From: a virus
Direction: 5' to 3' (one strand)
IMG/VR virus record: IMGVR_UViG_3300042542_004122
Span: 1 to 64,000 of that record
Length of the DNA stretch: 64,000 nucleotides
Both the position numbers and the translations under genes were made by a program. The notes beneath the pieces were generated by a model, which worked only from the letters and a program-made list of their open reading frames with translations, did not search any database and had not been told where the DNA came from. Shown here one piece after another: positions 21,481 through 46,739 of this stretch (position 1 is the first letter of the stretch; each line of letters starts with the position of its first letter).

Positions 21481-21485
21481 ATATA

Positions 21486-21516
21486 AAATGCCAGCATTTG
21501 TTTAATGCTGGCATTT
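21486..21516. terminator. Bidirectional terminator
   Basis: 12-bp stem AAATGCCAGCAT/ATGCTGGCATTT, loop 7 nt; T-rich on the minus strand. Confidence 0.8.
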
Positions 21517-21519
21517 AAT

Positions 21520-21591
21520 TGGTGGCTTGACCTGGAATCGCACCAGAATGGCAGACTTATGAGATCCGCTCGGTTAACTAAACCTCAAGCC
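21520..21591 (-). tRNA. tRNA-Met or tRNA-Ile2 (CAT), elongator
   Basis: Acceptor GGCTTGA/TCAAGCC (fully paired position 1-72), anticodon loop CTCATAA, CCA encoded. Short 72-nt form. Met versus lysidine-Ile cannot be settled. Confidence 0.85.
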
Positions 21592-21597
21592 TTGCAT

Positions 21598-22173
21598 TTA
21601 TAGCGTAGGACCGCCGACGGGGCGATTACATTCGCATAGTTGATCAGTAAGGAGTGCATCTAGAATACGTAGGGTCTCATCAGCACTACGTCCTACGTTT
21701 AGGTTATTCACCGAAACGTGCTGAATAACATCGCTAGGATCTACGATAAAAGTTGCACGGAGTGCAACACCAGAGGTAGTATCAAGAACTCCTAGCTGAT
21801 AGGCTAGGCCTGTAATCTCGACATCTTCTACAGGATCTACAAATCCTTCTCGAAGAGTATCGGCAAACATCCAAGAATTAGTCTTCTTTAGATCGGGATG
21901 TGCGTTTCTCCATGCTAGCTTGCAGAACTCATTATCGGTTGATCCGATAAGAAGAACTGTATCTCGGTCTTCAAAATCCTTATTTAGCTTATCATAAGCT
22001 ACAATCTCAGTAGGGCATACAAAGGTAAAGTCTTTAGGATAAAATACTATTACTTTCCACTTACCCGGAAAACTAGTCTCATCAATATGCTCAAAAGCAT
22101 CCTCACCCTCTAATACTCCTGGCTTAACGCCTTTAATATTAAATGATTCTAGCTTATCTCCAACGGTTTTCAT
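21598..22173 (-). CDS. ahpC: 2-Cys peroxiredoxin (AhpC type)
   Basis: 191 aa. FYPKDFTFVCPTEIVAYD (about 45-62) has the peroxidatic Cys in FVCPTE; LCECNRPVGG at the C-terminus has the resolving Cys. Full length for AhpC. It detoxifies peroxides. Unusual for a phage; it probably protects infected cells. The gene ends 7 nt before tRNA-Met. Confidence 0.93.
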   Translation of the reverse strand: MKTVGDKLESFNIKGVKPGVLEGEDAFEHIDETSFPGKWKVIVFYPKDFTFVCPTEIVAYDKLNKDFEDRDTVLLIGSTDNEFCKLAWRNAHPDLKKTNSWMFADTLREGFVDPVEDVEITGLAYQLGVLDTTSGVALRATFIVDPSDVIQHVSVNNLNVGRSADETLRILDALLTDQLCECNRPVGGPTL

Positions 22174-22646
22174 TTCTTCTCACTTTCTTCTTTCAAAACA
22201 TACTGTTGCATTTTATTGTGTGGTATTCCTGCAACATGAATACCAGGGGAACGTTGTCCCTTGCCGCTTTCATCAAAATAGTTTTTAAACTGTATATTGT
22301 ACGGTCTAAAATCTACATTGGCGGTTTTATACGCTCCAATAGTCATAACTTCTATTGGAGACGGATATAGTTTATCGTAAGCAGCTTTAACTACTTTCAT
22401 TACAGATTCAGCTCCTTTGCTGAAACCGTAAAGATAGTAGCATTTTTCATCTTCGACTATAGACATAGCAATATCTAAGTCTTCATGATAAAGTGTTATA
22501 GGATACAATCCTCGTAATTTAGCATAATCTTCAAAAGCTGCCTGATCAAATTGGCCTTTTAAACCACGAAAACCTATGATAACACAGTCGTTAGCATAGG
22601 TTTGTAGAGGCCATATAGTTAGTATGGTTGCGATTAGTTTTTTCAT
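22170..22646 (-). CDS. Secreted alpha/beta-hydrolase-like protein
   Basis: 158 aa. Signal peptide MKKLIATILTIWPLQTYA; YYLYGFSKGAESVMK (about 70-84) is a nucleophile elbow (G-F-S-K-G), and GIHVAGIPHNKM near the C-terminus could supply the catalytic His. A periplasmic esterase or lipase is plausible. Cotranscribed with ahpC (ATGA). Confidence 0.6.
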   Translation of the reverse strand: MKKLIATILTIWPLQTYANDCVIIGFRGLKGQFDQAAFEDYAKLRGLYPITLYHEDLDIAMSIVEDEKCYYLYGFSKGAESVMKVVKAAYDKLYPSPIEVMTIGAYKTANVDFRPYNIQFKNYFDESGKGQRSPGIHVAGIPHNKMQQYVLKEESEKK

Positions 22647-22649
22647 TTT

Positions 22650-22866
22650 AAAATTTGGTGTGGGCTATGCACAAGAGCGTTGCATCTTGCCATGATCTCT
22701 TTTCCAATCCCCCACACAGACTAGAACGTTCTGTCATCTCTATAAACCTTCACCAACCGACAGCTCAGAGTGTGAATTTGTTGAGAAATTTTACATAGCC
22801 TCTTCAACAGGCTCTCCTCTAGCAGTCTTCATTGACTGACGTTACGTATCGTGTCAATCCATCGTC
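22650..22866. other. Non-coding structured segment
   Basis: Contains GTGTGGG...CCCACAC around about 55 nt (22658-22725), CTGTC...GACAG and TGTTGA...TCAACA inverted repeats. No convincing gene and no complete clover leaf. Confidence 0.45.
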
Positions 22867-22876
22867 TACTAGAAAC

Positions 22877-22953
22877 TGGCGCCTCTGGCAGGAGTCGAAC
22901 CCACAACCGCTCGGGTAGAAACCGATTGCTCTATCCAATTGAGCTACAAAGGC
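22877..22953 (-). tRNA. tRNA-Arg (TCT)
   Basis: Anticodon loop TTTCTAC, acceptor GCCTTTG/CAGAGGC, CCA encoded. Confidence 0.92.
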
Positions 22954-22970
22954 ATTTAACTTTATGATTA

Positions 22971-22999
22971 ATAATATCAAGTTTAGAGATAACTTGCAA
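22971..22999 (-). promoter_or_regulatory. Promoter TTGCAA-17-TATTAT
   Basis: -35 22994-22999, -10 22971-22976; drives tRNA-Arg leftward. Confidence 0.7.
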
Positions 23000-23007
23000 C
23001 TAAAAAA

Positions 23008-23081
23008 TGGCACCGGCACAAGGACTTGAACCCTGACAAACAGATTTGGAGGCTGTCGTGCTACCATTACACTATGCCGAT
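23008..23081 (-). tRNA. tRNA-Trp (CCA)
   Basis: Anticodon loop CTCCAAA, acceptor ATCGGCA/TGCCGGT, discriminator G as in tryptophan tRNAs, CCA encoded. Confidence 0.88.
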
Positions 23082-23085
23082 AATT

Positions 23086-23171
23086 TGGTGCCCGCAGCCA
23101 GACTTGAACTGGCACGCCTCTAAAGGCTACGGATTTTAAGTCCGTTGCGTCTGCCATTCCGCCATGCGGGC
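23086..23171 (-). tRNA. tRNA-Leu (TAA)
   Basis: Class II, anticodon ACGGA-CTTAAAA-TCCGT, long variable arm, CCA encoded. Confidence 0.95.
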
Positions 23172-23176
23172 AATAT

Positions 23177-23252
23177 TGGTAGCCGTAGAAGGAGTTGCAC
23201 CTACAACATCTCACTAATCAGGTGAGCGCTCTGCTAATTGAGCTATACGGCT
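23177..23252 (-). tRNA. tRNA-Ile (GAT)
   Basis: Anticodon CTCAC-CTGATTA-GTGAG, acceptor AGCCGTA/TACGGCT, CCA encoded. Confidence 0.95.
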
Positions 23253-23257
23253 ACAAT

Positions 23258-23351
23258 TGGTAGTCCCACCAGGATTCGAACCTGGACTGCTCTCTAATCT
23301 GGAGACAATGCCGAATATAAGTCGGGTGTTCTACCGTTAAACTATGGGACC
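23258..23351 (-). tRNA. Class II tRNA with TAT anticodon (Ile-ATA?)
   Basis: Acceptor GGTCCCA/TGGGACT, D-arm GTT/AAC, anticodon loop CTTATAT, T-stem CCAGG/CCTGG, CCA. A 24-nt variable region holds a TCTC-CAGATTA-GAGA stem-loop. Isoleucine tRNAs are class I, so this long-arm TAT tRNA is unusual. Confidence 0.75.
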
Positions 23352-23360
23352 ATAAAAATA

Positions 23361-23436
23361 TGGAGGGCCCCGTCGGAGTCGAACCGACAACCTACAACTT
23401 AAAAGGATGCTGCTCTGCCAATTGAGCTAGGGGCCC
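23361..23436 (-). tRNA. tRNA-Lys (TTT)
   Basis: Anticodon loop CTTTTAA, acceptor GGGCCCC/GGGGCCC, CCA encoded. Confidence 0.92.
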
Positions 23437-23588
23437 TGATGTTACTGACAGCATTATCACATCCTAAGTAGGTTCTAAATACTCGGTTTTATCTACATCA
23501 TACTCTCGGGTCATATAGCGTACGCAACTGAATCGTGCCTTATATGGCTTGCAATAGTAGACCGGGCATACCGAAACCGGTAAAAAAA

Positions 23589-23663
23589 TGGTGGGCCGTG
23601 ACGGGATTGAACCGCCGACATTCGCCGTGTAAAGACGCTGCTCTGCCGCTGAGCTAACAGCCC
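23589..23663 (-). tRNA. tRNA-Val (TAC)
   Basis: Anticodon loop TTTACAC, acceptor GGGCTGT/ACGGCCC, CCA encoded. The 150-nt gap to tRNA-Lys shows no gene. Confidence 0.92.
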
Positions 23664-23738
23664 ATAAAAGCCCCTGCCGGCCCGTGAGTTTCTTTCGTGG
23701 GCAGGAACGGTATGTTTTATATCAAAAACATACAAAAC

Positions 23739-23814
23739 TGGTAGAGCGTAGGGGATTCGAACCCCTGTTAACGGATTGAAAGCCCGCGATCCTAGGCCGC
23801 TAGACGAACGCTCC
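23739..23814 (-). tRNA. tRNA-Glu (TTC)
   Basis: Anticodon loop CTTTCAA, acceptor GGAGCGT/ACGCTCT, CCA encoded. A GTATGTTTT/AAAACATAC hairpin lies just downstream (about 23710-23733). Confidence 0.93.
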
Positions 23815-23819
23815 TCAAT

Positions 23820-23894
23820 TGGTTGCAGAGACAGGACTTGCACCTGTGGCCTTCTGGGTATGAGCCAGACGAGCTGCTTCTGCTCCACTCTGCG
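23820..23894 (-). tRNA. Initiator tRNA-fMet (CAT)
   Basis: Acceptor CGCAGAG/CTCTGCA with the unpaired C1-A72 that marks bacterial initiator tRNAs. D-arm GGAGCAG...CAGCTCG and anticodon stem TCTGG/CCAGA with loop CTCATAC. Close to the bacterial initiator consensus; only two consecutive G-C pairs border the loop instead of three. Confidence 0.88.
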
Positions 23895-23905
23895 TTATGA
23901 TACTT

Positions 23906-24007
23906 GATTGTGTGCATTTTTATGAGAATCGAACTCACTCAACTCCGAACGCGGCAGAGCTATTTACCATTATATCGGCGTGGCCTTTGCCTTCCATGCA
24001 CACAATC
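23906..24007 (-). ncRNA. tRNA-like element closed by 12-bp helix
   Basis: GATTGTGTGCAT/ATGCACACAATC enclose a core with T-arm GTGAG-TTCGATT-CTCAT, D-arm-like TAATGGTAAATAG and CTCTG-CCGCGTT-CGGAG. Loop position 33 is C, not T, and there is no CCA, so it is not a normal tRNA. Confidence 0.5.
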
Positions 24008-24101
24008 AAATATCATTGATACTTGTTTCCCGAATTTTACTCTCTGCGTTGTCGCCGCAGATCCTTCATCCGACAATGTTTTTCAAAACATCAACTTATA
24101 T

Positions 24102-24130
24102 ATAATACTAAAACTTAGAGCATCTAGCAA
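24102..24130 (-). promoter_or_regulatory. Promoter TTGCTA-17-TATTAT
   Basis: -35 24125-24130, -10 24102-24107; start of the fMet-to-Lys tRNA array. Confidence 0.75.
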
Positions 24131-24161
24131 TATAAAAATGCAATTTTATACTCTAGACGCA

Positions 24162-24203
24162 AAAAATGCGATAATCTAGGTTACCCTAAACTATCGCATT
24201 TTT
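24162..24203. terminator. Bidirectional terminator
   Basis: 12-bp stem AAAAATGCGATA/TATCGCATTTTT with 18-nt loop. Confidence 0.75.
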
Positions 24204-24205
24204 GT

Positions 24206-24509
24206 AGGAAAGCTGAGATTACACTTTCTATATTAGCACTTCAAGAGGTACCCTCTATTTGCAGTAGAGGTTTTCTTGACATCCACCAGATGCCTGCTAA
24301 GGTCACCCAGTATACCAACAGTATCGCCTTTTAAAGTCTGGCAGTAGACTTGACGTTATACGCTACTCTATATTATACCGTCCGCTGACCTTGCGAGCCA
24401 TTAAGCCTTGCGAGCTACGAATTTTTTAATATAAACTGATTTCACCTTGCGGGTTACATCAGACCAAGTTCTCTTTCGAGCTTGGTATTAGATACCTTTC
24501 ACATATAAC
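24206..24509. other. Structured non-coding DNA
   Basis: No gene seen. Long-range repeats include AAGGTCA...TGACCTT (24299-24392), which enclose AAGTC...GACTT and GATAC...GTATAC hairpins like a distorted clover leaf. Several short CCTTGCGAG-type words recur near 24388-24450. Confidence 0.5.
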
Positions 24510-24627
24510 CGAGGCAGACTTTGCTTTTTTAAAACATTGACTGGATTTGAACCAGCGTCCGTTTGCTTCCAACGCAAATGCTCATCCACTGAGCTACAAT
24601 AATAACCTACTGCGATGTGCTGCCTCG
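24510..24627 (-). ncRNA. tRNA-Pro-like (TGG) core inside long helix
   Basis: CGAGGCAG/CTGCCTCG flank a core (24535-24604) with D-arm GCTC/GAGC, anticodon TTTGC-GTTGGAA-GCAAA and T-stem CTGG/CCAG. Acceptor pairing is poor and CCA absent. Confidence 0.55.
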
Positions 24628-25056
24628 TTGCTCCGTATGGTTTTGACATACAAAATACAACACACCACGTATCTTTCGCGACGCGCGCTACTCGATCGTA
24701 TTTTGCGACGATGTATAAGCATTTATAGCTTATCCACTACCGCTGATACTGCAAAAATGCCTTTAGTTGCTTAAACTTCAGACAGAGATGCTACCCTTTG
24801 TTCTACCAACTGCTAGATTGGTGTTGTAGTGAAGTCGGCACCACCCGTTACATTCCAATAACTTAGGTTCCCCTTTCGGGCCTATAAGCTATCGTTTTCT
24901 CACTACACCTAGTTCATTGTTACCTCCGTTGCCGAAGGCTAGGAACTGGGCTTGCTTAAGTGGGCCACTCGGAGAGTGGTGCGGTTATGTAGGGATTACC
25001 GCTTTTATCACATTACTGTGACTATCCTTATGGGGCTTAAGCGCCCCAACTCATTA
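24628..25056. other. Structured non-coding DNA
   Basis: No gene seen. Inverted repeats: TGTAGTGA...TCACTACA (24825-24907), CTTAGG...CCTATAAG, CCACTC-gga-GAGTGG, GCGGT...ACCGC and GGGGC...GCCCC. Looks like a chain of structured RNAs; family unknown. Confidence 0.5.
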
Positions 25057-25063
25057 TTTATCT

Positions 25064-25092
25064 ATAATATCAAACTTTTAAGTAACTACCAA
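25064..25092 (-). promoter_or_regulatory. Promoter TTGGTA-17-TATTAT
   Basis: -35 25087-25092, -10 25064-25069; would transcribe the structured region leftward. Confidence 0.7.
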
Positions 25093-25182
25093 CTAAAAAA
25101 TGACTTTTCTTTGTCGGTCCTCTTTAAGAGTTTTATTTTGTAGGAGAGGAGGTTTTACCTGTCTCTCCGCTTCAGTTTTTAT

Positions 25183-25211
25183 ATATTACTAAACTTTTTA
25201 GCGTTGAGCAA
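25183..25211 (-). promoter_or_regulatory. Promoter TTGCTC-17-TAATAT
   Basis: -35 25206-25211, -10 25183-25188; below tRNA-Pro, pointing into the structured region. Confidence 0.65.
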
Positions 25212-25250
25212 TATAAAAATAAAAGAATTTGGTATAGTGCTATTTTTAAA

Positions 25251-25328
25251 TGGTCCGGGTAGCAGGATTTGAACCTACGACCCCTCCGCCCCAAACGGAG
25301 TGCTCTAGCCAGACTGAGCTATACCCGG
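25251..25328 (-). tRNA. tRNA-Pro (TGG)
   Basis: Anticodon CTCCG-TTTGGGG-CGGAG, acceptor CCGGGTA/TACCCGG, CCA encoded. Confidence 0.95.
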
Positions 25329-25338
25329 TTAAATTATG

Positions 25339-25414
25339 TGGAGGACTCGACAGGAGTTGCACCTGCATATTACCGATTTGCAGTCGGCTGCCTAACTATT
25401 CGAACCACGAGTCC
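25339..25414 (-). tRNA. tRNA-Cys (GCA)
   Basis: Anticodon GCCGA-CTGCAAA-TCGGT, discriminator T as in cysteine tRNAs, CCA encoded. Confidence 0.93.
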
Positions 25415-25416
25415 GT

Positions 25417-25491
25417 TGGGGTGACTACTCGGATTTGAGCCGAGTCTGACAGAATCACAATCTGTAGTGCTGCCATTACACTATAGCCACC
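25417..25491 (-). tRNA. tRNA-His (GTG)
   Basis: Anticodon ACAGA-TTGTGAT-TCTGT, G-1 opposite discriminator C as required for histidine, CCA encoded. Confidence 0.94.
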
Positions 25492-25496
25492 ATAAC

Positions 25497-25572
25497 TGGT
25501 GCCCCAGACAAGACTTGCACTTGTTTCCTTACCCTTACCAAGGGTCTGTTCAGCTATATGAACTTCAGGGGC
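25497..25572 (-). tRNA. tRNA-Thr (GGT)
   Basis: Anticodon loop TTGGTAA, acceptor GCCCCTG/CTGGGGC, CCA encoded. Confidence 0.9.
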
Positions 25573-25578
25573 GTAATA

Positions 25579-25654
25579 TGGTAGGTTGTCTCTGAATCGA
25601 ACAGAGTTCCTTCGCTCTTCAGGCGAATGTGTGCACCAGCTTCACCAACAACCC
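25579..25654 (-). tRNA. tRNA-Phe (GAA)
   Basis: Anticodon TTCGC-CTGAAGA-GCGAA, acceptor GGGTTGT/ACAACCT, CCA encoded. Confidence 0.94.
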
Positions 25655-25655
25655 A

Positions 25656-25732
25656 TGGAGTACCTAGTAGGACTTAAACCCACAACCTCTCAGTTCGTAG
25701 CCGAGTGCTCTGTTCAATTGAGCTATAGGTAC
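25656..25732 (-). tRNA. tRNA-Arg (ACG)
   Basis: Anticodon CTCGG-CTACGAA-CTGAG, acceptor GTACCTA/TAGGTAC, CCA encoded. Needs A34-to-inosine editing by host TadA. Confidence 0.93.
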
Positions 25733-25738
25733 AAGAAA

Positions 25739-25815
25739 TGGTAGACCTCTTCGGACTTGAACCGAAAACCCTCAGTTTAAGAGACTGATGCTCTAACCAA
25801 TTGAGCTAGAGGTCC
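25739..25815 (-). tRNA. tRNA-Lys (CTT)
   Basis: Anticodon TCAGT-CTCTTAA-ACTGA, acceptor GGACCTC/GAGGTCT, CCA encoded. Confidence 0.94.
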
Positions 25816-25818
25816 ATA

Positions 25819-25907
25819 TGGCGGAGAGCCGGAAGTACGATTTCCATCCCTTTGCAGGCACCCTCAGTTTAGCAAACTGTGCTAGCTCCCCGCTAGTTGG
25901 CCTCTCC
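25819..25907 (-). tRNA. tRNA-Ser (GCT)
   Basis: Class II, anticodon ACAGT-TTGCTAA-ACTGA, discriminator G, CCA. Its first 15 nt overlap the end of the upstream gene, whose TAG stop is the tRNA's D-arm. Confidence 0.9.
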
Positions 25908-26102
25908 AGAAATTTGTTTATAATGATGTAAACAGTATTTACGATGCTTATAGTGAATATGAGCATCATCAAAACAGTTATGAAAAGCACAAAGCTCTAG
26001 CTTGTTTTTAAACACAGCTAGAGCGTGCCCAGCGGCGTCAGCGTCTAGTTGGGTCATCCAATCTACAAACGCGCGGCGAGCATCCTGCAATTCATCATTC
26101 AT
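25893..26102 (-). CDS. Hypothetical His/Cys-rich protein, 69 aa, leaderless-type start
   Basis: MNDELQDARRAFVDWMTQL helix, then CAFHNCFDDAHIHYKHRKYC, a likely zinc-binding HNH-remnant-like segment. TTGCTT-17-TAAGAT ends 6 nt before ATG. The last five codons, including the TAG stop, lie inside tRNA-Ser(GCT), so RNase P cleavage of the tRNA would remove the stop codon. Confidence 0.65.
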   Translation of the reverse strand: MNDELQDARRAFVDWMTQLDADAAGHALAVFKNKLELCAFHNCFDDAHIHYKHRKYCLHHYKQISGEAN

Positions 26103-26108
26103 ATAGAT

Positions 26109-26137
26109 ATCTTACTACAGAAATAAGTATTAAGCAA
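26109..26137 (-). promoter_or_regulatory. Promoter TTGCTT-17-TAAGAT, 6 nt before ATG
   Basis: -35 26132-26137, -10 26109-26114, ATG at 26102; drives the gene plus the Ser-to-Pro tRNA array. Confidence 0.8.
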
Positions 26138-26151
26138 GATAAAAATGAAAT

Positions 26152-26241
26152 TGGCGGAGTGATGGCGGAATCGAACCCCTGGCCCGTAGGCTCCAACCGC
26201 TTTCAAGGCGGTGCTAGTATCCCCGACTAGACATGCACTCC
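26152..26241 (-). tRNA. tRNA-Ser (TGA)
   Basis: Class II, anticodon loop CTTGAAA, discriminator G, CCA. First 15 nt overlap the end of the zinc-ribbon gene upstream. Confidence 0.92.
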
Positions 26242-26367
26242 AAATTCTTTGTAGTTAACCCATTTGAGATATAGGTGATGGCACACGGGACATTCTGTTG
26301 GTCCCGCATAATCTTGCCACTCTGTGGCACAACGCATACATCTAAAATGGGCTATTTGGCGATTCAT
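26227..26367 (-). CDS. Zinc-ribbon protein, 46 aa, between two tRNAs
   Basis: HFRCMRCATEWQDYAGPTEC then PVCHHLYLKW: two CxxC pairs, a rubredoxin-like or ribbon zinc site. ATG lies 7 nt after the CCA of tRNA-Leu(TAG) and the TAG stop is in the D-arm of tRNA-Ser(TGA), the same layout as 25893-26102. Confidence 0.65.
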   Translation of the reverse strand: MNRQIAHFRCMRCATEWQDYAGPTECPVCHHLYLKWVNYKEFGVHV

Positions 26368-26374
26368 TGTAAAT

Positions 26375-26458
26375 TGGTGCGACTAGAGGGATTTGCACCC
26401 CCACCTCTCTCGAGACTAGTTCCTAAGACTAGCGCGTCTGCTGTTTCGCCATAGTCGC
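26375..26458 (-). tRNA. tRNA-Leu (TAG)
   Basis: Class II, anticodon GCTAGT-CTTAGGA-ACTAGT, acceptor GCGACTA/TAGTCGC, CCA encoded. Confidence 0.94.
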
Positions 26459-26464
26459 ATTATC

Positions 26465-26539
26465 TGGTGCCCACAGAGAGGATTGAACTCCCGACCTTCG
26501 GTTTACAAAACCGCTGCACTACCGCTGTGCTATATGGGC
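26465..26539 (-). tRNA. tRNA-Thr (TGT)
   Basis: Anticodon loop TTTGTAA, acceptor GCCCATA/TGTGGGC, CCA encoded. Confidence 0.92.
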
Positions 26540-30453: not shown

Positions 30454-30738
30454 ATGGAAGCAGAATTCTTTAAACTGGTTGCAGAGGTAGGATTTCCTAT
30501 AGCATCATCTATAGCTGGTGGTTACTTTGTATTTCTTACTCTCAAATTCATTCTCGCAGGGGTTCAAAGCTCTGTAAAAGGTTTAAGTGGAATTATTGTT
30601 GCACTTGATAACAGAGTTAAAACAATGAACCACGATATTATCAGAATTGATGCACTAATATCTACAGCTCTAGGAGTAAAACCAGATACAGATAGAATTG
30701 CAAGAGCGGACGGTAAAAACGACGCTAGAAAGGACTAA
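30454..30738 (+). CDS. Small membrane protein with coiled coil, 94 aa
   Basis: Start MEAEFFKLVAEVGFPIA with AAAGGAG upstream. One TM segment (about 11-33), then a helical segment with LDNRVKTMNHDIIRIDALIS. Clearly related to the protein at 30925-31167 (EVGFPIA.., IxALxxRVxxxxxDxIRxxxxI). The fold recalls small phage holin-like/YvlB proteins; function unknown. First gene of the curli-type operon. Confidence 0.7.
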   Translation: MEAEFFKLVAEVGFPIASSIAGGYFVFLTLKFILAGVQSSVKGLSGIIVALDNRVKTMNHDIIRIDALISTALGVKPDTDRIARADGKNDARKD

Positions 30739-30739
30739 G

Positions 30740-30922
30740 GTGTTTTACTTAGGTTATAATATACAAATATCAAATAGCTCTCTAGTATTAGACGAAGAGT
30801 TAGTTTTAATGCCCAATCAAAATAATAGTAGGATACAACAAACTTTACCTTGGAAAGAAGGTGATAAATTTGAATTAACAGTAATTCAGGGTAATACTGT
30901 ATTTAAAAAAGTGAAGGATTAA
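30740..30922 (+). CDS. Hypothetical protein, 60 aa, GTG start
   Basis: GTG at 30740 with AAAGGA 5 nt upstream. FYLGYNIQISNSSLVLDEEL then FELTVIQGNTVFKKV: small beta-rich protein, possibly SpoVT/AbrB-like in topology. Sandwiched between two related membrane proteins; function unknown. Confidence 0.6.
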   Translation: MFYLGYNIQISNSSLVLDEELVLMPNQNNSRIQQTLPWKEGDKFELTVIQGNTVFKKVKD

Positions 30923-30924
30923 CT

Positions 30925-31167
30925 ATGGATATGGTTCAACTTATTAATAAATATGGATTTCCCATTGTTGCTGCAGGCGGTATGGGTTACCTTATTTTTT
31001 ACGTTTGGAAATGGGCAACGGCAGAAATTAAACCTGTTCTATCAGAAGCTAATACTGTATTGATAGCATTAATAGATCGTGTCAGAATGTTAGATAACGA
31101 TTTAATAAGACTTAATCAAAAGATTAACATAGTATTAATGCTAAAGGAAAGGAATGAAAAGCCGTAA
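30925..31167 (+). CDS. Small membrane protein with coiled coil, 80 aa
   Basis: MDMVQLINKYGFPIVAAGGM, TM about 8-28, then SEANTVLIALIDRVRMLDNDLI helix. Paralog of 30454-30738. Overlaps the next gene by 14 nt. Confidence 0.7.
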   Translation: MDMVQLINKYGFPIVAAGGMGYLIFYVWKWATAEIKPVLSEANTVLIALIDRVRMLDNDLIRLNQKINIVLMLKERNEKP

Positions 31168-33046
31168 ATTATTTAAATTATTAACAACTGCAAGCTTATT
31201 AATATCAGCAATCGCTTTTTCACAAACTCTTCCTTCAGGATATGTTGGAACAGTTACTAACAATACGCCAAATACCTGGGAAACCTATTCATATTCTTTT
31301 ACACCAAATATCTCAGGAACAAACTATGTCGGTTTTGCGTTCAGACAAGATCCTGCATTCTGGACATTCGACAACGTGTCGTTAACAGAATCAGGATCTA
31401 CCGTAAATCTATTGACAAACGGAGCATTCACAACTGGTGGTGCAATCAACATCACCACAAGTAATGGACCAGGAACAATTCAAGCACCAACAAATTGGGG
31501 TGTGTGGTATCAAAACGGCACGTATCCAGCAGCTGCTGGCACTTGGAACGACATCGGAGGATCTCACGGCGGTGTTTGGTATGATGGAGCCGTCGGAACA
31601 TTTGACGGTATCTATCAAGGAATTAGCCTACTAGCAGGCACAACATATACGATTACATTTGAAGTGTCTGGTAATCATGTAAGCAATGGTAGTTCTGTAC
31701 AGCTTGGCATTTATGCTGGTCCATGTGCTGACACAACGATTGCTGTTGCGTCATGTACAATACCAAGCTCAGCTGGATTCACAACATTAGCAACACCAGC
31801 AGAAGGTGCATCTGCAGGCAATCCTACACCAACTATTGTAAGTCAAGTTGCTGGAACACCAATCGTTTCAGAATCATCAAGCCGCGGCACTACGACAACT
31901 ACTGTGTCAAACACAAGAGGAACAACAGCTTATGTTCCTACAACTACATTCACAGGCACAAGACAAGACCCAACGCTCACGGTAAATCGCAACATCACTA
32001 CAGTTGCAACAACACCGATCACCACAGTAACAACGCACACAACACCTATCACAGTAGTAACAAGCACAACACCAACTACAATTCAAACATGGAGTGACGG
32101 ATCTATTACGACTGTAAACGGAACAGCAACGACCTCAACGACAGTTGTCAATGAAATATTAACCGGGACTTCTGTGGCTAATGAAGTAGTCACCACACAA
32201 GATAATCAACTTTTCACTACTAGAATTGATCAGTTAGCAAAACTTGACAAAATTAGCACTCTTCAAAATGAAAATTCACTAGCTGATCCATTGGCAAGAA
32301 ATAAAGTATTTGGTAATAAGATCATAACAAGGGGTCCTGTAAACAAGGATTCTCAAGCTTATATTACAGGATACTCTCTTCGTTCTGGCACCAAAGACAC
32401 ATATAGCTACACGACAAATGTTTTTGGTATTGGGTATGAACAAAAACATAATGATTCATTATTATTTGGCATTCAATTAAATGGTGCGGTTACAGATCTA
32501 AGCGGTGATGCGTCTTCTGGAGAACTAAAGAAGTATTCATTTGACATATTTGCTTTAAAAGTAGAAGATGATTGGATACTAAAAACAAATTTTGGTGTAG
32601 CATACAATGAGTTTGAAACATCACATTTCATGCGCGGTCTAAACTTACTGAACACAGCTTCTACAAAAGGCTATGATACTTGGTTTGTAAATAGACTTTA
32701 TACGCCAGATAACTACGGATTTAGACCATTTGCAGGTTTAAAGTTTGAATACGATTATAGAGACAGTGTATTTGAAACTGGCCCAAATCTTACGGCAGTA
32801 AGACATGCTGGTAGAAGTGACTTTGAAGTTACTGGTCACGGCGGTATTAGATTTGAACAAGACATCATTCAAGATATGACTGGTGTTATAGAGGGCATGA
32901 TTGAAACCAGTAAAGCAAAATCAGCTTTTGCTGGATTCTCTTATGCTATAGACGAAAATTCTTCTATTAAGCTAAAGTATGCAATACAAGAGAAAGAAGA
33001 TGTGGTAAATAACATTATTGGAGCACAGATAAGAATAATGTTCTAA
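31154..33046 (+). CDS. Adhesin-like outer-membrane protein, 630 aa
   Basis: Signal peptide about 1-23 (LLTTASLLISAIAFS). Residues 24-200 form a beta-sandwich with WETYSYSFTP, VSLTESGS and NLLTNGAF blocks, like carbohydrate-binding domains. About 215-335 is a Thr/Ser/Val-rich linker. About 385-630 is a beta-barrel ending IGAQIRIMF with terminal Phe, as in autotransporters. The first part is visibly richer in GC than its flanks, suggesting a host-derived mosaic. It may be displayed on the infected cell alongside the curli fibre. Confidence 0.7.
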   Translation: MKSRKLFKLLTTASLLISAIAFSQTLPSGYVGTVTNNTPNTWETYSYSFTPNISGTNYVGFAFRQDPAFWTFDNVSLTESGSTVNLLTNGAFTTGGAINITTSNGPGTIQAPTNWGVWYQNGTYPAAAGTWNDIGGSHGGVWYDGAVGTFDGIYQGISLLAGTTYTITFEVSGNHVSNGSSVQLGIYAGPCADTTIAVASCTIPSSAGFTTLATPAEGASAGNPTPTIVSQVAGTPIVSESSSRGTTTTTVSNTRGTTAYVPTTTFTGTRQDPTLTVNRNITTVATTPITTVTTHTTPITVVTSTTPTTIQTWSDGSITTVNGTATTSTTVVNEILTGTSVANEVVTTQDNQLFTTRIDQLAKLDKISTLQNENSLADPLARNKVFGNKIITRGPVNKDSQAYITGYSLRSGTKDTYSYTTNVFGIGYEQKHNDSLLFGIQLNGAVTDLSGDASSGELKKYSFDIFALKVEDDWILKTNFGVAYNEFETSHFMRGLNLLNTASTKGYDTWFVNRLYTPDNYGFRPFAGLKFEYDYRDSVFETGPNLTAVRHAGRSDFEVTGHGGIRFEQDIIQDMTGVIEGMIETSKAKSAFAGFSYAIDENSSIKLKYAIQEKEDVVNNIIGAQIRIMF

Positions 33047-33061
33047 TTAGAAAGGTATTTA

Positions 33062-33502
33062 GTGATAAATAAAAATGTATTTTTATTCGTTATATTAATG
33101 CTGAGTTACTCCGCTAAAGCTAGTGAATTAAATTTTAAATTTAAAAATCCGGCTTTTAGCGGAGTTAACTATTCTAGCCACGTATTTGCAATTGAACAAC
33201 TGGAAGAGCAAAGAAAACAAAAAATAAAAGATGAACAAGAAAAAATTAGAAAAGAGTTAGAAAGTAAACTTGAACAGAGTAATCTTCAGAAGTTTTTAAG
33301 AAATGTTGAAGCTAGAATATACGCTCAAATATCTAAAGATGTTGTCGATAAGATGTTCGACGGCACCGGATCGTCATCGGGAACCGTTGTAATAGGAGGA
33401 GCTAGCGTAAGTTTTAACAATGACGGCTCTAACATTACATTAAATGTAGTAGACGATAAAGGTAATACTACTGTTATAACTATACCTCTAGGGGCTTTTT
33501 AA
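33062..33502 (+). CDS. csgF: Curli assembly factor CsgF
   Basis: 146 aa. Signal peptide about 1-20, then LNFKFKNPAFSGV (about 22-34), the conserved CsgF N-terminus that inserts into and narrows the CsgG pore. It is followed by a coiled neck and a C-terminal beta domain (GTVVIGGASVSF, ITIPLGAF). GTG start; stop overlaps the csgG start. In bacteria CsgF couples curli nucleation to secretion. Confidence 0.88.
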   Translation: MINKNVFLFVILMLSYSAKASELNFKFKNPAFSGVNYSSHVFAIEQLEEQRKQKIKDEQEKIRKELESKLEQSNLQKFLRNVEARIYAQISKDVVDKMFDGTGSSSGTVVIGGASVSFNNDGSNITLNVVDDKGNTTVITIPLGAF

Positions 33503-34275
33503 TGAAAAAGATTTGCTTAGTAGGTTTTTTATTGTTAACAGCATGTATACCTCCTAATGTAGAAGAGCCTATATCAATAAATGAATCTGTAGTTAAAAAA
33601 CTAACTATAGTTAATAGTCCTTTATCTACAGAAGCTCCTTTTTATATAGCAGTATATCAATTTTCAGATAAAACAGGACAGAGACGTCCAAGCGAAGTAG
33701 TAGCTCATCTAAGTAGTGCTGTTACGCAGGGAGCCGAAACTTGGCTTATAAAAGCACTTCAAGATGCTGGTAACGGTAGCTGGTTTAAAGTTGTAGAAAG
33801 AGTAGGGTTAGAAAACCTAACTAGAGAAAGACAATTAATCAGGCAAACCAGAGAACAATACGAAGGTAAGGATGCTAAGCCACTAAGACCTTTAGTATTC
33901 GCATCTCTTATATTAGAAGGTGGAATTATAGGATATGACGTAAATACGATAAGCGGTGGAATAGGAGCGAGATATTTAGGTATAGGTTCTTCAACACAAT
34001 ATAGACAGGATCAAGTAACTATAGTAATGAGACTAATTAGTGTTCAAACAGGAGAAGTGCTGCTTAACGTAGCTACAAGTAAAACCATACTTAGCTCTGC
34101 TGTAGGTATAGATGTTTTTAAATTTGTAGATGCAGGAACTCGAGCCGTAGAAATAGAAACTGGTTTAGCTACAAATGAGCCTGTAAACTATGCTGTCAGA
34201 GCAGCGATTGAAGCTGGAGTAGTAGAACTAATTCAAGAAGGTGCAAGAAAGGGGCTTTGGAGAATGTCAGAATGA
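33502..34275 (+). CDS. csgG: Curli secretion channel CsgG
   Basis: 257 aa. Lipobox LTAC at Cys 15. FYIAVYQFSDKTGQRRP (about 46-62), LENLTRERQLIRQ, IIGYDVNTISGGIGARYLGI and QVTIVMRLISVQTGEVL match CsgG along its whole length, including the constriction loop region and the transmembrane hairpins. It forms the nonameric outer-membrane pore for curlin export. Coupled to csgF (TAATG) and curlin (ATGA). Confidence 0.95.
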   Translation: MKKICLVGFLLLTACIPPNVEEPISINESVVKKLTIVNSPLSTEAPFYIAVYQFSDKTGQRRPSEVVAHLSSAVTQGAETWLIKALQDAGNGSWFKVVERVGLENLTRERQLIRQTREQYEGKDAKPLRPLVFASLILEGGIIGYDVNTISGGIGARYLGIGSSTQYRQDQVTIVMRLISVQTGEVLLNVATSKTILSSAVGIDVFKFVDAGTRAVEIETGLATNEPVNYAVRAAIEAGVVELIQEGARKGLWRMSE

Positions 34276-34925
34276 AAAAATTATATACTATTTTAATGAT
34301 CTTATTAAGCACTCATGCTTATGGACAAAGTAACGTTCTATATATAGAACAATCAGGCGCTGGATTCTCAGGTTCTATTACTCAAGATGGAGCAACTAAT
34401 ATAATTGGAACTTCTAGTAGTCCTTCGATAATTAACGGTACTACCAATACTATTAGTGTCAATCAAATTGGAAATAGTAACTCTTTAGATTTTGCAGTTT
34501 ATGGAGATACAAATACGATATCTATTACAAAAACAGGCGATTCCAATTCAGTTACTCTTGAAATAGGCAGTAACGGACAAGATAGTAGCACTAATGAATA
34601 TACCCTAGACATTACTGGTAGTAGTAATACTATAGAATCTACTATAACTGGCGGTATAAATACTGTAGGTATAACAATTTTCGGAGACAGTAATAGTATT
34701 ACTAATACTATATCTAGTGGTAATACAGAACTTACTCTTACCGTAACAGGTAGCACAAATATTATAACAACTAATCAATCAGGAGCTGGAGCACATAGAA
34801 TAATACATGACCATACAGGAGATACTGGAACTTTTAGTTTTAGCCAGAGTGGAACCAATGCAAAAATTATCAATATTATTACTAACGGTAATAATCAGTC
34901 AGTTACTGTATCTCAAACAGACTGA
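34272..34925 (+). CDS. Curlin-repeat protein (CsgA/CsgB-like)
   Basis: 217 aa from MKKLYTILMILLSTHAYG (signal peptide). At least seven repeats of the type N-x5-Q/T-x-G-x-x-N, e.g. NTISVNQIGNSNS and NTISITKTGDSNS, plus AKIINIITNGNNQSVTVSQ. Such repeats stack as cross-beta strands of curli amyloid. Being directly after csgG, it is the expected substrate. Its last 68 nt also encode the signal peptide of the next gene. Confidence 0.85.
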   Translation: MKKLYTILMILLSTHAYGQSNVLYIEQSGAGFSGSITQDGATNIIGTSSSPSIINGTTNTISVNQIGNSNSLDFAVYGDTNTISITKTGDSNSVTLEIGSNGQDSSTNEYTLDITGSSNTIESTITGGINTVGITIFGDSNSITNTISSGNTELTLTVTGSTNIITTNQSGAGAHRIIHDHTGDTGTFSFSQSGTNAKIINIITNGNNQSVTVSQTD

Positions 34926-35907
34926 AGCAAGAATAGGAGATGTAACAGAGCTTAACGGACAGGCGTCTGTTACAAGAAATAAAAAAGAACAACCTATAGG
35001 CATTCGAGACGGTATCGAATCTATGGACACTATCTCTACTAAAAATTCAAAGGTTAGGATAGATTTTATTGACAAAACCCACGTTAGTGTAACTGAGCAT
35101 AGTGACTTAGAAATAGATGAGTATGTTTTTGATCCTTCTAGAGATTTAGCAAAATTATCTATGAAAGTATCTTCTGGCACTGTACAATATGCAAGCGGAC
35201 TTTTAGCAAAAAAAGTAGGAGCTGTAGATGTTAGAACTCCTACTGCTTCTATAGCAGTTAGAGGTACAGAATTTTCTATGAGTGTCAATGAGTTAGGTAA
35301 AAGTTTGATTATGCTTTTACCTAACCAAGATGGAAGCACAGGAGAAATTACCGTTAGCACAGACGTTGCAAGCGTTATTCTAAATAGAAGTTATCAAGCT
35401 ACTATAGTGACTAGCAGCTCTAGTCCGCCTTCAAATCCACTTATTCTTAATATGTTAGGCAGAGTAATAAATAATGATTTACTGCTGTCCATGCCGAAAT
35501 CTGTAGAAACAGTTTCTAATGTCGAAAAAGAACAAGGTCCATTGGATTTTGACCTTAAATTTGTAGACGTAAATATGCTGGATAAAGATCCTCTTAAATT
35601 TGAAGAACTGAATGTAGACCTGCTAAAGTCTGATTTTTTCAATACTAGATTAAACAATATAGATTCAATTTTTGATAATTTTAGTGAACGAGATGGTCAA
35701 GTGACTGGATATAATCCAACTACACAAATTAATACAGTAGTAGAAGACACTACCGTATTAACCCAAAGATTAGATATTTCTATATTTTCTGTAAAAGTTA
35801 ATAAAGATTATGGATTAAAAATCGAATACAATGGCGATGGTATCTCTGCTGCGTTTGTAGCTGGAAATATGCAATCCAACAGTATTTTAAAGGTTAAGCA
35901 AAAATGA
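34858..35907 (+). CDS. Secreted FecR-domain protein
   Basis: 349 aa. Start at 34858 gives a signal peptide LSILLLTVIISQLLYLKQTEA read in another frame of the curlin gene. FecR domain about 26-150: IGDVTELNGQASVTRN, RDGIESMDTISTKNSKVRI, VRTPTASIAVRGTEFSM. FecR domains are periplasmic sensors; here it is paired with a CHASE2 cyclase, a combination found in bacteria. C-terminal about 190 aa is unassigned. Confidence 0.8.
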   Translation: MQKLSILLLTVIISQLLYLKQTEARIGDVTELNGQASVTRNKKEQPIGIRDGIESMDTISTKNSKVRIDFIDKTHVSVTEHSDLEIDEYVFDPSRDLAKLSMKVSSGTVQYASGLLAKKVGAVDVRTPTASIAVRGTEFSMSVNELGKSLIMLLPNQDGSTGEITVSTDVASVILNRSYQATIVTSSSSPPSNPLILNMLGRVINNDLLLSMPKSVETVSNVEKEQGPLDFDLKFVDVNMLDKDPLKFEELNVDLLKSDFFNTRLNNIDSIFDNFSERDGQVTGYNPTTQINTVVEDTTVLTQRLDISIFSVKVNKDYGLKIEYNGDGISAAFVAGNMQSNSILKVKQK

Positions 35908-37958
35908 AAAAAGTAATCATTACTTTACTAACAATCGCAATAGGTATCGGTATAAAGATATACGAGCCTAATATAGTAGAAATTTTAAAACTCAAAGGAT
36001 TTGATCAGTTATTAACTTTAAATGATACTAAAACTAGTGAAACAGCCGTAATAATAGAAATTGATGAGCCTACAATAGAGCAACAAGGTCAATGGCCTTG
36101 GCCAAGAGATTTAATAGCAGATGGTATTAAAAAAGCTGTAGATCATGGAGCTGAGATTGTAGTTCTATATCCGCTTTTTGCAGAAAAAGATAGATTTAAT
36201 AAAGATGAAATACTTAAAGAGGTTATAACAAATAGTAAGGTCATAGGAACGCAATCTGCTTCTTTAAAAGGGAAAGGAGATCTAGTAACTAGAGGTTTTG
36301 CTATCGTAGGAAATACAGAAGAACAATGGTTTTATAGGTATCAAAACGGAATAGGTAGTATTTCTGAAATATCTAAAACAGCTCAAGGTATGGGTATGAT
36401 TACTACAGTCCCAGAACTAGATGGAGTAACTAGAAAAATACCTTTAGTGTTAATGGTTGGTGATAAGTTCTATCCTTCTTTACCTTTAGAAATAGCAAGA
36501 GTAATACATGGGGCTAAAAATTATAGAGCAAAAGTTACTGAGGCGGGATTATCTAGCATATATATCAATAAGAATTTTTCCATAGAACCAGATAAGCGCG
36601 GAGAGTTATGGATAGATTGGTCTTGGACCTGGCCTATTAAAAGTTGGAAAGAGGAATCTTGGGGAGACTTGACAGGTAAAATAGCTATTTTAGCTATAAA
36701 CGTAGAGGGAATTACTAATACTATTGCAACCCCTGCAGGCACTAAACTAGGTCATGAAGTTAGTTTAGCTGCATGGGAAACTCTATGGAACGATAATAAA
36801 ATAACTAGACCTTATTGGGCAGATTTAACTGAGCTTTTATTTTTCTGTCTGTTGATAGCAGTCAGTGCTCTCGTTGCTGATAAAGGAAATAAATTACTCG
36901 TAGGAGTATGGGGAGTAGTTATACTACTAGTTCCATTTAGTATAAGTTACTACGTCTTTAATCAATATCAATATTTAACTGATTGGACATTTAGTTTAGT
37001 ATTTGGAACACTGTTCTATGGATATGTCGTGTATTCTAGATTTGTTAAAGAGTTTAAACTAAAGCAACAAATCAAGAAACAATTCCAATCTTATCTTTCA
37101 AAGGCTCTTGTGGAAAAACTCCAGAAGAATCCAGAGCTATTAAAGCTTGGCGGAGATAGCAGAGAGCTGTCAATCATGTTCACAGACGTTCGTGGGTTTA
37201 CCTCTATCAGCGAACACTATGGTGAGAATGTTCAAGGATTAACCCAAATCATGAATCGCTATATGACAGCGATGACTGCAAAAATTCTTGAGAATGAAGG
37301 AACGCTTGATAAGTATATTGGCGATGCACAGATGGCATTTTGGAATGCGCCGCTTGATGACAAGCAGCACGCCAAGAATGCAGTTAAAACAGCTTTAAGT
37401 ATGTTAGGAGATTTAGATGAATTCAACAGAAGTATTGCGGCTGAAGGCGTCCCTCCTTTCGGCATGGGCCTTGGTATCAATACCGGTATGGTTGTTGTTG
37501 GAAATATGGGCAGCGATCAACGTTTCGATTATACTTGCCTCGGTGATGCTGTCAATCTTGCTAGTCGTCTCGAAGGACAAAGCAAACCGTATGGAGTCAA
37601 ATTAGTCATTGGTTCAAAGACAGCAGAGTATGTTTCAGATGAATATTTTATATTAGAACTGGACACTATTGCGGTAAAAGGTAAAAAACAAGGAGTTAAT
37701 ATCTATACTGTTTTAGGCACTAATAAAGAGATAGATGATTTAGGTTTTTCTTATGCAAGAAAAGATCATAACGATATGTTAGATTATTATAGAAATAAAA
37801 ACTTCACTAGTGCTACCGTATTGTGCGAAAGATTAACGAAAGCATTTAAAGGCGATATGAAATCATACTACGAAATGATGATGGATCGTTGTCGTGAGTA
37901 TACAAAAACCCCGCCACCAGCTAACTGGGACGGGGTTTACAGAGCTACTAGTAAATAG
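35904..37958 (+). CDS. CHASE2 sensor - class III adenylate/guanylate cyclase
   Basis: 684 aa. N-terminal TM, CHASE2 periplasmic domain about 40-310 (IIEIDEPTIEQQGQWPWPR, ATPAGTKLGHEV), three TM helices about 310-385, then a class III cyclase domain. MFTDVRGFTS and YIGDAQMAFWNAP provide the metal aspartates, LDKYIGD the purine-selecting Lys, and CLGDAVNLASRLE the Asp and the transition-state Asn/Arg. All key residues are present, so it should be active, probably making cAMP. It ends in two successive TAG codons. The region about 37080-37620 has more GC-rich codons, suggesting a recent host origin. Confidence 0.93.
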   Translation: MKKVIITLLTIAIGIGIKIYEPNIVEILKLKGFDQLLTLNDTKTSETAVIIEIDEPTIEQQGQWPWPRDLIADGIKKAVDHGAEIVVLYPLFAEKDRFNKDEILKEVITNSKVIGTQSASLKGKGDLVTRGFAIVGNTEEQWFYRYQNGIGSISEISKTAQGMGMITTVPELDGVTRKIPLVLMVGDKFYPSLPLEIARVIHGAKNYRAKVTEAGLSSIYINKNFSIEPDKRGELWIDWSWTWPIKSWKEESWGDLTGKIAILAINVEGITNTIATPAGTKLGHEVSLAAWETLWNDNKITRPYWADLTELLFFCLLIAVSALVADKGNKLLVGVWGVVILLVPFSISYYVFNQYQYLTDWTFSLVFGTLFYGYVVYSRFVKEFKLKQQIKKQFQSYLSKALVEKLQKNPELLKLGGDSRELSIMFTDVRGFTSISEHYGENVQGLTQIMNRYMTAMTAKILENEGTLDKYIGDAQMAFWNAPLDDKQHAKNAVKTALSMLGDLDEFNRSIAAEGVPPFGMGLGINTGMVVVGNMGSDQRFDYTCLGDAVNLASRLEGQSKPYGVKLVIGSKTAEYVSDEYFILELDTIAVKGKKQGVNIYTVLGTNKEIDDLGFSYARKDHNDMLDYYRNKNFTSATVLCERLTKAFKGDMKSYYEMMMDRCREYTKTPPPANWDGVYRATSK
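37906..37938 (-). terminator. Terminator embedded in the cyclase 3' end
   Basis: AAACCCCG/CGGGGTTT; on the minus strand followed by TTTTTG. It ends the convergent leftward operon from inside the plus-strand coding sequence. Confidence 0.65.
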
Positions 37959-46306: not shown

Positions 46307-46472
46307 CTACTTTAAAGGTCAAGTCGTAGAATTTAGTTATAATTACTGGTCCATCTATAATGAGGCTGGTAAGCTAATTCTGACTACTAAAGATAAAAAA
46401 TATGCTGAGGCTAAATTGCAACAACTAAATAAGGCTTTAGCAGACAAGATCTCGTTGATAGCAGCGAAATAA
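46287..46472 (+). CDS. Hypothetical protein, 61 aa, GTG start
   Basis: FQLKHNYFKGQVVEFSYNYW then YAEAKLQQLNKALADKI. The stop codon directly precedes the acceptor piece of the tmRNA. Function unknown. Confidence 0.5.
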   Translation: MFQLKHNYFKGQVVEFSYNYWSIYNEAGKLILTTKDKKYAEAKLQQLNKALADKISLIAAK

Positions 46473-46730
46473 GCATACTGGACACGGGGGCAGTGCCCGT
46501 CATCTCCACCATAAATATGTCGATTAGTAAACATTGACATATTTATAATGGGGATGAATTAGGATCGACAGGTGTGTAAAGGTTGAAGTAGAGATAGGTG
46601 CGCGAGCGACCTCTAATCGCAAGAAATCAATAAATGCTAACGATAATAGCATCGAAGAGATCCGCCTAGCGGCATAACTTCTGCGGTATGGGCTCCACCG
46701 TATTACCCAACGGGCCTATTCCTTTTAGAA
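46473..46730 (+). ncRNA. ssrA: Circularly permuted (two-piece) tmRNA
   Basis: Acceptor piece: GCATACTG, T-arm ACGGG-GGCAGTG-CCCGT, then CATCTCC-A-CCA (46501-46511). A 38-nt intervening segment folds as TAAATATGTC...GACATATTTA. The coding piece starts GGGGATG (46550-46556), which pairs perfectly with CATCTCC including G3-U70, the alanine identity pair. CAG(G)TGTGT pairs with GCATACTG as helix P2. The tag frame 46636-46677 reads ANDNSIEEIRLAA plus stop. Rescues stalled ribosomes and tags nascent chains for proteolysis. The 3' end is approximate. Confidence 0.92.
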
Positions 46731-46739
46731 AGATTTTTA

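What the first reader, a model, noticed from the sequence alone, without database searches (positions are those of the whole stretch)
30454..37958. Phage-encoded curli-type secretion and sensing operon: CsgF-CsgG-curlin-FecR-CHASE2 cyclase
Nine co-directional, mostly overlapping genes include a full-length CsgG pore, its CsgF plug, a secreted curlin-repeat protein, a secreted FecR-domain sensor and an apparently active CHASE2 class III cyclase. A 630-aa adhesin-like barrel protein and two related small membrane proteins lie upstream. CsgE, CsgB and CsgD are absent. I recall CsgG/CsgF being noted in a few aquatic phages, but not joined to a FecR-CHASE2-cyclase arm. A phage could make infected cells secrete amyloid (aggregation, receptor masking, virion anchoring) or use CsgG-CsgF as an outer-membrane pore, and set cAMP by envelope state.
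Basis: partly seen in the sequence, partly recalled or inferred. Interest (0 to 1): 0.95.

Follow-up and report, generated by a model that had tools for sequence, protein, structure and literature searches.

The report
Phage curli-secretion module with cAMP cyclase
This phage carries a known kind of gene cassette for exporting amyloid-like fibres through the infected cell's outer membrane, coupled to a cAMP-making sensor; the cassette was published in 2022, but sequence evidence here suggests that its "iron regulator" protein is really a fibre anchor and that this version adds an outer-membrane barrel.

Summary
All nine genes are present at 30454-37958, and CsgF, CsgG, FecR and CHASE2-cyclase match their families over the expected lengths, on a 72-kb virus record with T5-like replication genes. 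The novelty claim fails: CsgF-CsgG-curlin-FecR-adenylate cyclase in phages was described in 2022 (PMC9599517), earlier in part (PMC7029224, PMC9004378).

What I add: (1) The module is widespread and invariant. In 34 viral loci with >=8 kb on both sides of csgG, CsgF, curlin, FecR and cyclase occur in 34/34 and the small-protein pair in 29. (2) That pair, probably the published "histidine kinase", has no kinase domain. (3) The 630-aa protein is a 12-strand autotransporter-type barrel, present in 13/34 loci. (4) The FecR protein has no anti-sigma part. It is a secreted FecR head, a loose linker and a C-terminal curlin-like repeat (end motif in 56/58 versus 4/680 other ORFs). Its head weakly resembles the retention module of RTX adhesins. 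(5) A Hyphomonas chromosome carries the core operon, unlike 75 other bacterial curli loci. (6) No cAMP receptor domain was found in 15 phage records, and only 5 of 41 Pelagibacter genomes have one.

Most likely mechanism: a self-anchored curli exporter whose state feeds a CHASE2 cyclase.

The parts
30454..30738 (+). smA: 94-aa small membrane protein, one N-terminal hydrophobic segment and a helical tail ending D-G-K-N-D-A-R-K-D (phrog_18771)
   Evidence: PHROG 7.6e-33; no kinase domain; TM score; linked to the module in 73/80 loci found with it alone
30698..30922 (+). sm2: 74-aa small protein, AbrB/MazE-like at sub-threshold level only
   Evidence: weak NCBIfam AbrB hit 0.064, MazE 0.17 in one relative; homologues in 19 of 86 loci
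30925..31167 (+). smB: 80-aa paralogue of smA with conserved D-R-[IV]-R-M-L-D-N-D-L-I-R-L helix
31154..33046 (+). AT630: secreted autotransporter-type protein; N-terminal passenger, Thr-rich stalk, C-terminal 12-strand barrel (about 32351-33043) ending in F
   Evidence: AlphaFold2 barrel, pLDDT about 63-90 per 10-residue block; Foldseek NalP translocator 1.3e-11; one relative hits Pfam Autotransporter 9.8e-12
33062..33502 (+). CsgF, 146 aa, signal peptide, pore-plug motif F-x-[NS]-P-x-F-x-G
   Evidence: Pfam 5.1e-21 over the full profile; motif in 67/83 viral CsgF
33502..34275 (+). CsgG, 257-aa outer-membrane lipoprotein pore (lipobox L-T-A-C, Cys15)
   Evidence: Pfam 9.3e-55; alignment A1 with Cys15 invariant
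34257..34925 (+). Curlin-like fibre subunit, 222 aa, 11/22-residue repeats, C-terminal V-x-V-x-Q
34858..35907 (+). FecR-domain protein, 349 aa: signal peptide, folded FecR head (about 34927-35412), disordered linker (about 35455-35757), curlin-like tail (about 35782-35904)
   Evidence: Pfam 7.1e-9, AlphaFold2, Foldseek, tail tests
35904..37958 (+). CHASE2 class III adenylate cyclase, 684 aa: periplasmic CHASE2 (about 35964-36866), TM helices, cytoplasmic catalytic domain (about 37164-37712)
   Evidence: Pfam, catalytic residues
30429..30434 (+). TATAAT -10-like box, followed by an AAGGAG Shine-Dalgarno sequence before smA; possible module promoter
   Evidence: sequence read directly; the promoter scan did not list it, and promoter-like sites in the region are no more frequent than in shuffles

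Best explanation
It is a phage-borne type VIII (curli) secretion module. Inferred working: curlin is exported through the CsgG pore with CsgF at its outer mouth and forms amyloid-like fibres on the infected cell. The FecR protein is not an iron or sigma-factor regulator but the fibre's anchor. Its folded head stays in the periplasm, its roughly 100-residue linker threads CsgG, and its C-terminal curlin repeat nucleates or joins the fibre outside, doing the job of the missing CsgB. The CHASE2 cyclase, always encoded with it, reads the state of this assembly (or of the OM barrel) in the periplasm and sets cAMP in the cytoplasm. Shown by sequence: gene content, co-conservation, domains, catalytic residues, the curlin-like tail. 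Inferred: secretion, anchoring, sensing. The benefit to the phage (superinfection exclusion, holding siblings or virions together) is not determined.
For: Five-gene core in 34/34 fully flanked viral loci, at csgG identities down to about 50%. FecR C-terminal motif [hydrophobic]-x-[hydrophobic]-x-Q in 56/58 FecR and 67/91 curlins, against 2/69 CsgF, 1/66 CsgG, 1/46 cyclase and 4/680 other ORFs; a second set gives 34/42 FecR against 4/650. Profile comparison of FecR tail with curlin tail: probability 76, E 2e-5; seven control comparisons at most 1.1. The complete bacterial FecR proteins among the best matches lack it, 0/7. AlphaFold2: folded head, disordered linker, C-terminal strands. Head resembles the PupR signalling domain (6ovk) and the MpAFP cell-surface anchoring domain 5ix9 (TM 0.76 to target, 32% identity over 63 residues; profile E 0.0034; retention_LapA in one member 7e-4). 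CsgF keeps the pore-plug motif. Sinorhizobium precedent for OM barrel to CHASE2 cyclase (PMC13001267) and for a FecR gene near cyaD1 (PMC5498481).
Against: No experiment shows fibres. Cultures infected with Melnitz showed no clumping (PMC9004378). The FecR tail resemblance is weak for any single sequence, CsgF tails also score against the whole curlin HMM, and the window's own tail is among the less typical. In the second set only 18/59 curlins end with the strict motif. The 5ix9 similarity is marginal by sequence, and the top Foldseek hits are anti-sigma signalling domains. No cAMP receptor domain was found in 15 phage records or in 36 of 41 Pelagibacter genomes, so the output of the cyclase is unexplained. 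The Hyphomonas FecR lacks the tail.
Confidence: 0.4

Rival explanations
1. A plain curli cassette as published: CsgG/CsgF/CsgA-B make aggregating fibres, while FecR, 'histidine kinase' and cyclase are acquired regulators of its expression (PMC9599517).
For: Gene content and order are identical; aggregation is what curli do in bacteria.
Against: The 'kinases' are about 80-140 aa with no kinase domain. FecR here is a secreted protein without an anti-sigma part and carries a curlin-like tail. No CRP-type protein is encoded with it. No clumping was seen with Melnitz (PMC9004378).
Confidence: 0.25
2. CsgG-CsgF serve as an outer-membrane pore for lysis timing or nutrient uptake, with the small membrane proteins as holin-like partners; fibre formation is secondary or lost.
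For: Proposed for Melnitz (PMC9004378); smB matches a holin PHROG at 1.1e-4 over 19 residues; CsgE, the periplasmic gate, was not found.
Against: A curlin gene is present in 34/34 fully flanked loci, with 11/22-residue periodicity in the window's copy; CsgF keeps its plug motif. A pure pore would not need curlin or a FecR-curlin tail.
Confidence: 0.15
3. The cyclase serves anti-defence or metabolic takeover and shares only an operon with the curli genes.
For: The catalytic domain also matches PADLOC PycC cyclase models (2.5e-26); no cAMP receptor is found in the phages or most sampled Pelagibacter genomes.
Against: K470/T544 is the adenylate-type pair; PycC models are expected to match any class III domain. 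The gene with its CHASE2 domain is present in every fully flanked module, sometimes inverted.
Confidence: 0.1

Closest known systems
Pelagiphage T8SS module (PMC9599517; HTVC008M and Melnitz records)
   Same: Small-protein pair, CsgF, CsgG, curlin, FecR, (second curlin), adenylate cyclase in the same order; CsgG 48-53% and cyclase 36-39% identical
   Different: Here on a phage with T5-like polymerase, with an autotransporter barrel and no second curlin; I read the 'HK' as non-kinase membrane proteins and FecR as a curlin-tailed anchor
Bacterial curli operons (csgBAC-DEFG and alphaproteobacterial forms)
   Same: CsgG pore, CsgF, curlin-repeat subunits
   Different: No CsgE found; FecR and CHASE2 cyclase added. 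Of 76 non-phage bacterial loci only the Hyphomonas one, L088, has them
Sinorhizobium NsrA/CyaD1-CyaD2-CyaK/Clr with FecR gene smc02177 (PMC5498481, PMC13001267)
   Same: OM beta-barrel, CHASE2 adenylate cyclase and a FecR-domain gene in one pathway
   Different: No curli genes named there; a Crp-type receptor (Clr) is present there and not found here
Retention module of RTX adhesins (MpAFP 5ix9, LapA)
   Same: N-terminal folded domain of similar fold that, from general knowledge, lodges at the secretion pore and keeps a surface protein anchored
   Different: Pore would be CsgG instead of a TolC-type channel; sequence similarity is marginal

Membership tests
Type VIII (curli) secretion system | CsgG outer-membrane lipoprotein pore | tested here: met
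   Pfam 9.3e-55, lipobox Cys invariant
Type VIII (curli) secretion system | CsgF with N-terminal plug motif | tested here: met
   Pfam 5.1e-21; F-x-[NS]-P-x-F-x-G
Type VIII (curli) secretion system | Curlin-repeat secreted subunit | tested here: met
   Sub-threshold Pfam hit, but 11/22-residue repeats p 5e-5 and homologues in 81 of 86 loci
Type VIII (curli) secretion system | CsgE gate (not essential in all lineages) | tested here: not met
   No PF10627 match in the 72-kb record; the record may be incomplete
Type VIII (curli) secretion system | Amyloid fibres secreted in vivo | not testable with these tools
   Needs expression
Pelagiphage T8SS module (PMC9599517) | CsgF-CsgG-curlin-FecR-adenylate cyclase in order | tested here: met
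Pelagiphage T8SS module (PMC9599517) | Histidine kinase upstream, as named by the authors | tested here: not met
   Upstream proteins are 94, 74 and 80 aa with no kinase domain. They are homologous to the proteins at that position in HTVC008M and Melnitz, so this questions the published name rather than membership; that these are the published 'HK' is inferred from position
FecR iron-citrate/anti-sigma regulators | Cytoplasmic anti-sigma part and a transmembrane helix beyond the signal peptide | tested here: not met
   Only the N-terminal hydrophobic segment; no other domain
Class III adenylate cyclases with CHASE2 | Two metal Asp, adenine Lys and Thr/Asp, transition-state Asn and Arg | tested here: met
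   D428, D474, K470, T544, N551, R555
Type Va autotransporters | 12-strand C-terminal barrel | tested here: met
   Model has 12 strands from residue 400; NalP 1.3e-11
Type Va autotransporters | Passenger exported through its own barrel | not testable with these tools
   Needs localisation experiments
RTX-adhesin retention module | Sequence and fold match to the retention domain | tested here: inconclusive
   5ix9 TM 0.76 over 63 residues, profile E 0.0034; retention_LapA in 1 of 25

The most novel reading that the evidence does not exclude
The phage encodes a self-monitoring amyloid exporter: a FecR head retained at the CsgG pore, tethered through the pore to the curlin fibre, with CHASE2 cyclase reporting pore or fibre state as cAMP. 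It would be a retention-type anchor working in a type VIII system, carried by many phages.
Probability: 0.25. Interest if true: 0.82.

Novelty: new variant of a known kind. Interest (0 to 1): 0.55.

Why it matters
A concrete anchor-and-sensor model, with a named tail to delete and a named catalytic lysine to mutate, makes that testable in a laboratory E. coli csg-null strain. It would also explain how curli attach without CsgB, and it raises the question of what reads cAMP in hosts that mostly seem to lack a cAMP receptor.

Tried and rejected
Chance: rejected by domain E-values and by conservation across 34 loci. Bacterial chromosome instead of phage: rejected. Unreported operon: rejected. Phage-specific change at the CsgG constriction (residue equivalent to E. 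coli F56): no difference, L and F occur in both phage and bacterial CsgG. AT630 as a simple substitute for the second curlin: not exclusive, some loci carry both. Scanning FecR tails with the whole curlin HMM: not specific, CsgF tails score as well, so I relied on the profile-profile test and the end-motif count. sm2 as an AbrB-type regulator: only sub-threshold support. Module promoter: only a -10-like box, and scan hits in the region equal shuffles. Wide origin of the FecR-cyclase arm in bacteria: among 385 genomes drawn from the class of the Hyphomonas MAG, that MAG gave by far the best and longest FecR match (4.8e-65, positions 8-252 of 362; next 4e-39). The 'Sphingobacteriales' MAG hit: L090 is a T4-like phage contig, judged from its flanking genes. 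The phage-versus-Hyphomonas direction of transfer could not be settled: long branches.
Full report
Observation. The window is part of a 72,161-base virus record. At 30454-37958 nine + strand genes follow each other closely, while the genes on both sides run on the - strand. Pfam confirms CsgF, CsgG, FecR and a CHASE2-class III cyclase over the expected lengths. The curlin gene falls below Pfam's cut-off, but its G-x-x-N motif recurs at multiples of 11 residues (permutation p 5e-5), as expected of curlin repeats. The cyclase has both metal aspartates, the adenine-type lysine/threonine pair and the catalytic Asn and Arg. The DNA polymerase is closest to T5-like phages at 38-40% identity, so by that gene this is neither a T4-like nor an HTVC023P-type phage.

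Prior art. PMC9599517 (2022) describes CsgF, CsgG, curlin, FecR and adenylate cyclase, preceded by a 'histidine kinase', in pelagiphages of two families. PMC7029224 (2020) and PMC9004378 (2022) describe CsgG and CsgF in pelagimyophages and Melnitz. The HTVC008M and Melnitz records show the same order. Five PHROG families already cover six of the nine proteins.

How conserved it is. In 34 loci with at least 8 kb on both sides of csgG, CsgF, CsgG, curlin, FecR and cyclase are present in all 34, the small-protein pair in 29, and the autotransporter-like protein in 13. Contigs range up to 364 kb. Starting instead from the small protein smA, 73 of 80 loci contain other module genes; the seven exceptions are stretches of at most 11.2 kb. 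The cyclase and the small pair can be inverted or moved to the other end of the module. So the pair, although unannotated, belongs to the module.

The small pair. smA and smB (94 and 80 aa) are paralogues with a conserved helix after one hydrophobic segment. They have no kinase domain. Their position directly upstream of CsgF in HTVC008M and Melnitz makes them the likely 'histidine kinase' of PMC9599517; that identification is an inference. A 19-residue match to a holin PHROG is too short to name them holins.

The 630-aa protein. AlphaFold2 gives a C-terminal 12-strand barrel, with a helix before it and low confidence over most of the rest. Foldseek returns autotransporter translocators first (NalP, E 1.3e-11), and one relative matches the Pfam autotransporter model (9.8e-12). 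Two cyanophage proteins match its barrel, one annotated autotransporter. In different phages it lies before CsgF, between CsgF and CsgG, or between FecR and the cyclase. I found no mention of it in the passages of the published module papers that I read.

The FecR protein. It has a signal peptide but no further membrane helix and no anti-sigma domain, so it cannot work like E. coli FecR. AlphaFold2 shows a confident head (about residues 24-200), a disordered linker, and weak strands at the end. The ends of FecR proteins look like the ends of curlins: a terminal hydrophobic-x-hydrophobic-x-Q occurs in 56/58 FecR and 67/91 curlins but in 4/680 unrelated phage ORFs. In a second set it occurs in 34/42 FecR and 18/59 curlins against 4/650. 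A tail-to-tail profile comparison gives probability 76 and E 2e-5, against at most 1.1 for seven controls. Seven complete bacterial FecR proteins lack it. The head aligns to anti-sigma signalling domains and, over 63 residues at 32% identity, to the cell-surface anchoring domain of the RTX adhesin MpAFP. From general knowledge that module keeps the adhesin attached at its outer-membrane pore. A folded periplasmic head, a loose linker and a curlin-like end is the layout expected for a tether between the CsgG pore and the fibre. This is an inference from anatomy.

The cyclase arm. In Sinorhizobium an outer-membrane barrel (NsrA) is needed for signalling through CHASE2 cyclases, a cyaD1 plasmid without CHASE2 makes cAMP constitutively, and a FecR-domain gene lies near cyaD1, although it was not required for perceiving the plant signal tested. 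By analogy the phage CHASE2 domain may hold the cyclase off until the envelope assembly changes. No cNMP-binding domain was found in this record, in 14 other module-bearing records, or in 36 of 41 genomes of the Pelagibacter MAG's genus. What the cAMP acts on is unexplained.

Origin. Of 80 bacterial-collection loci, four carry the phage-type module and look like phage contigs (L086, L087, L090, L093) and 75 are curli operons without a FecR-plus-cyclase arm. One, on a 705-kb contig of a Hyphomonas MAG with ordinary chromosomal neighbours, carries CsgF-CsgG-curlin-FecR-CHASE2 cyclase. Its CsgG groups with the phage clade outside all other bacterial curli, but the branches are long and direction is open. 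It qualifies the published statement that FecR and cyclase are not part of bacterial curli operons.

Verdict. A real, well-conserved, already described kind of phage module, here in a variant with an autotransporter barrel and on a phage with a T5-like polymerase. The new and testable point is the anchor reading of FecR. Against it stand the weak single-sequence signal and the absence of clumping in Melnitz cultures.

Noticed in passing
window 10219-26539 (- strand) and 46419-46768: 28 tRNA genes in two arrays, including one with anticodon CTA (called tRNA-Pyl by ARAGORN, 11618-11691), plus a tmRNA gene. TAG ends 6 of 44 ORFs of 150 aa or more, so there is no sign of TAG recoding.
   Followed up: partly
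window 46740-53549: A nucleotide-sugar epimerase-like gene and a glycosyltransferase next to the tmRNA; possible surface-sugar modification block.
   Followed up: no
L088:9456-15479: A Hyphomonas MAG chromosome carries the CsgF-CsgG-curlin-FecR-CHASE2 cyclase operon, without the small-protein pair.
   Followed up: partly
L090, L086, L087, L093: Phage-type curli modules binned into bacterial MAGs in the genome collection; L090 is T4-like (clamp loader, family B polymerase, lysozyme read from the sequence).
   Followed up: partly
L004:187-1020: A 1.5-kb 'Salmonella phage' record holding a csgG that groups with bacterial CsgG; probably host or environmental DNA contamination.
   Followed up: no
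L003:8842-11636: The Melnitz record annotates two curlin-repeat proteins and a FecR protein, although PMC9004378 says the phage lacks the fibre genes.
   Followed up: partly
alignment A4: Many phage cyclases have Ser in place of the catalytic Asn551 (V-S-T-A-A-R instead of V-N-L-A-S-R), so some may be weak or inactive; the window's copy is intact.
   Followed up: no
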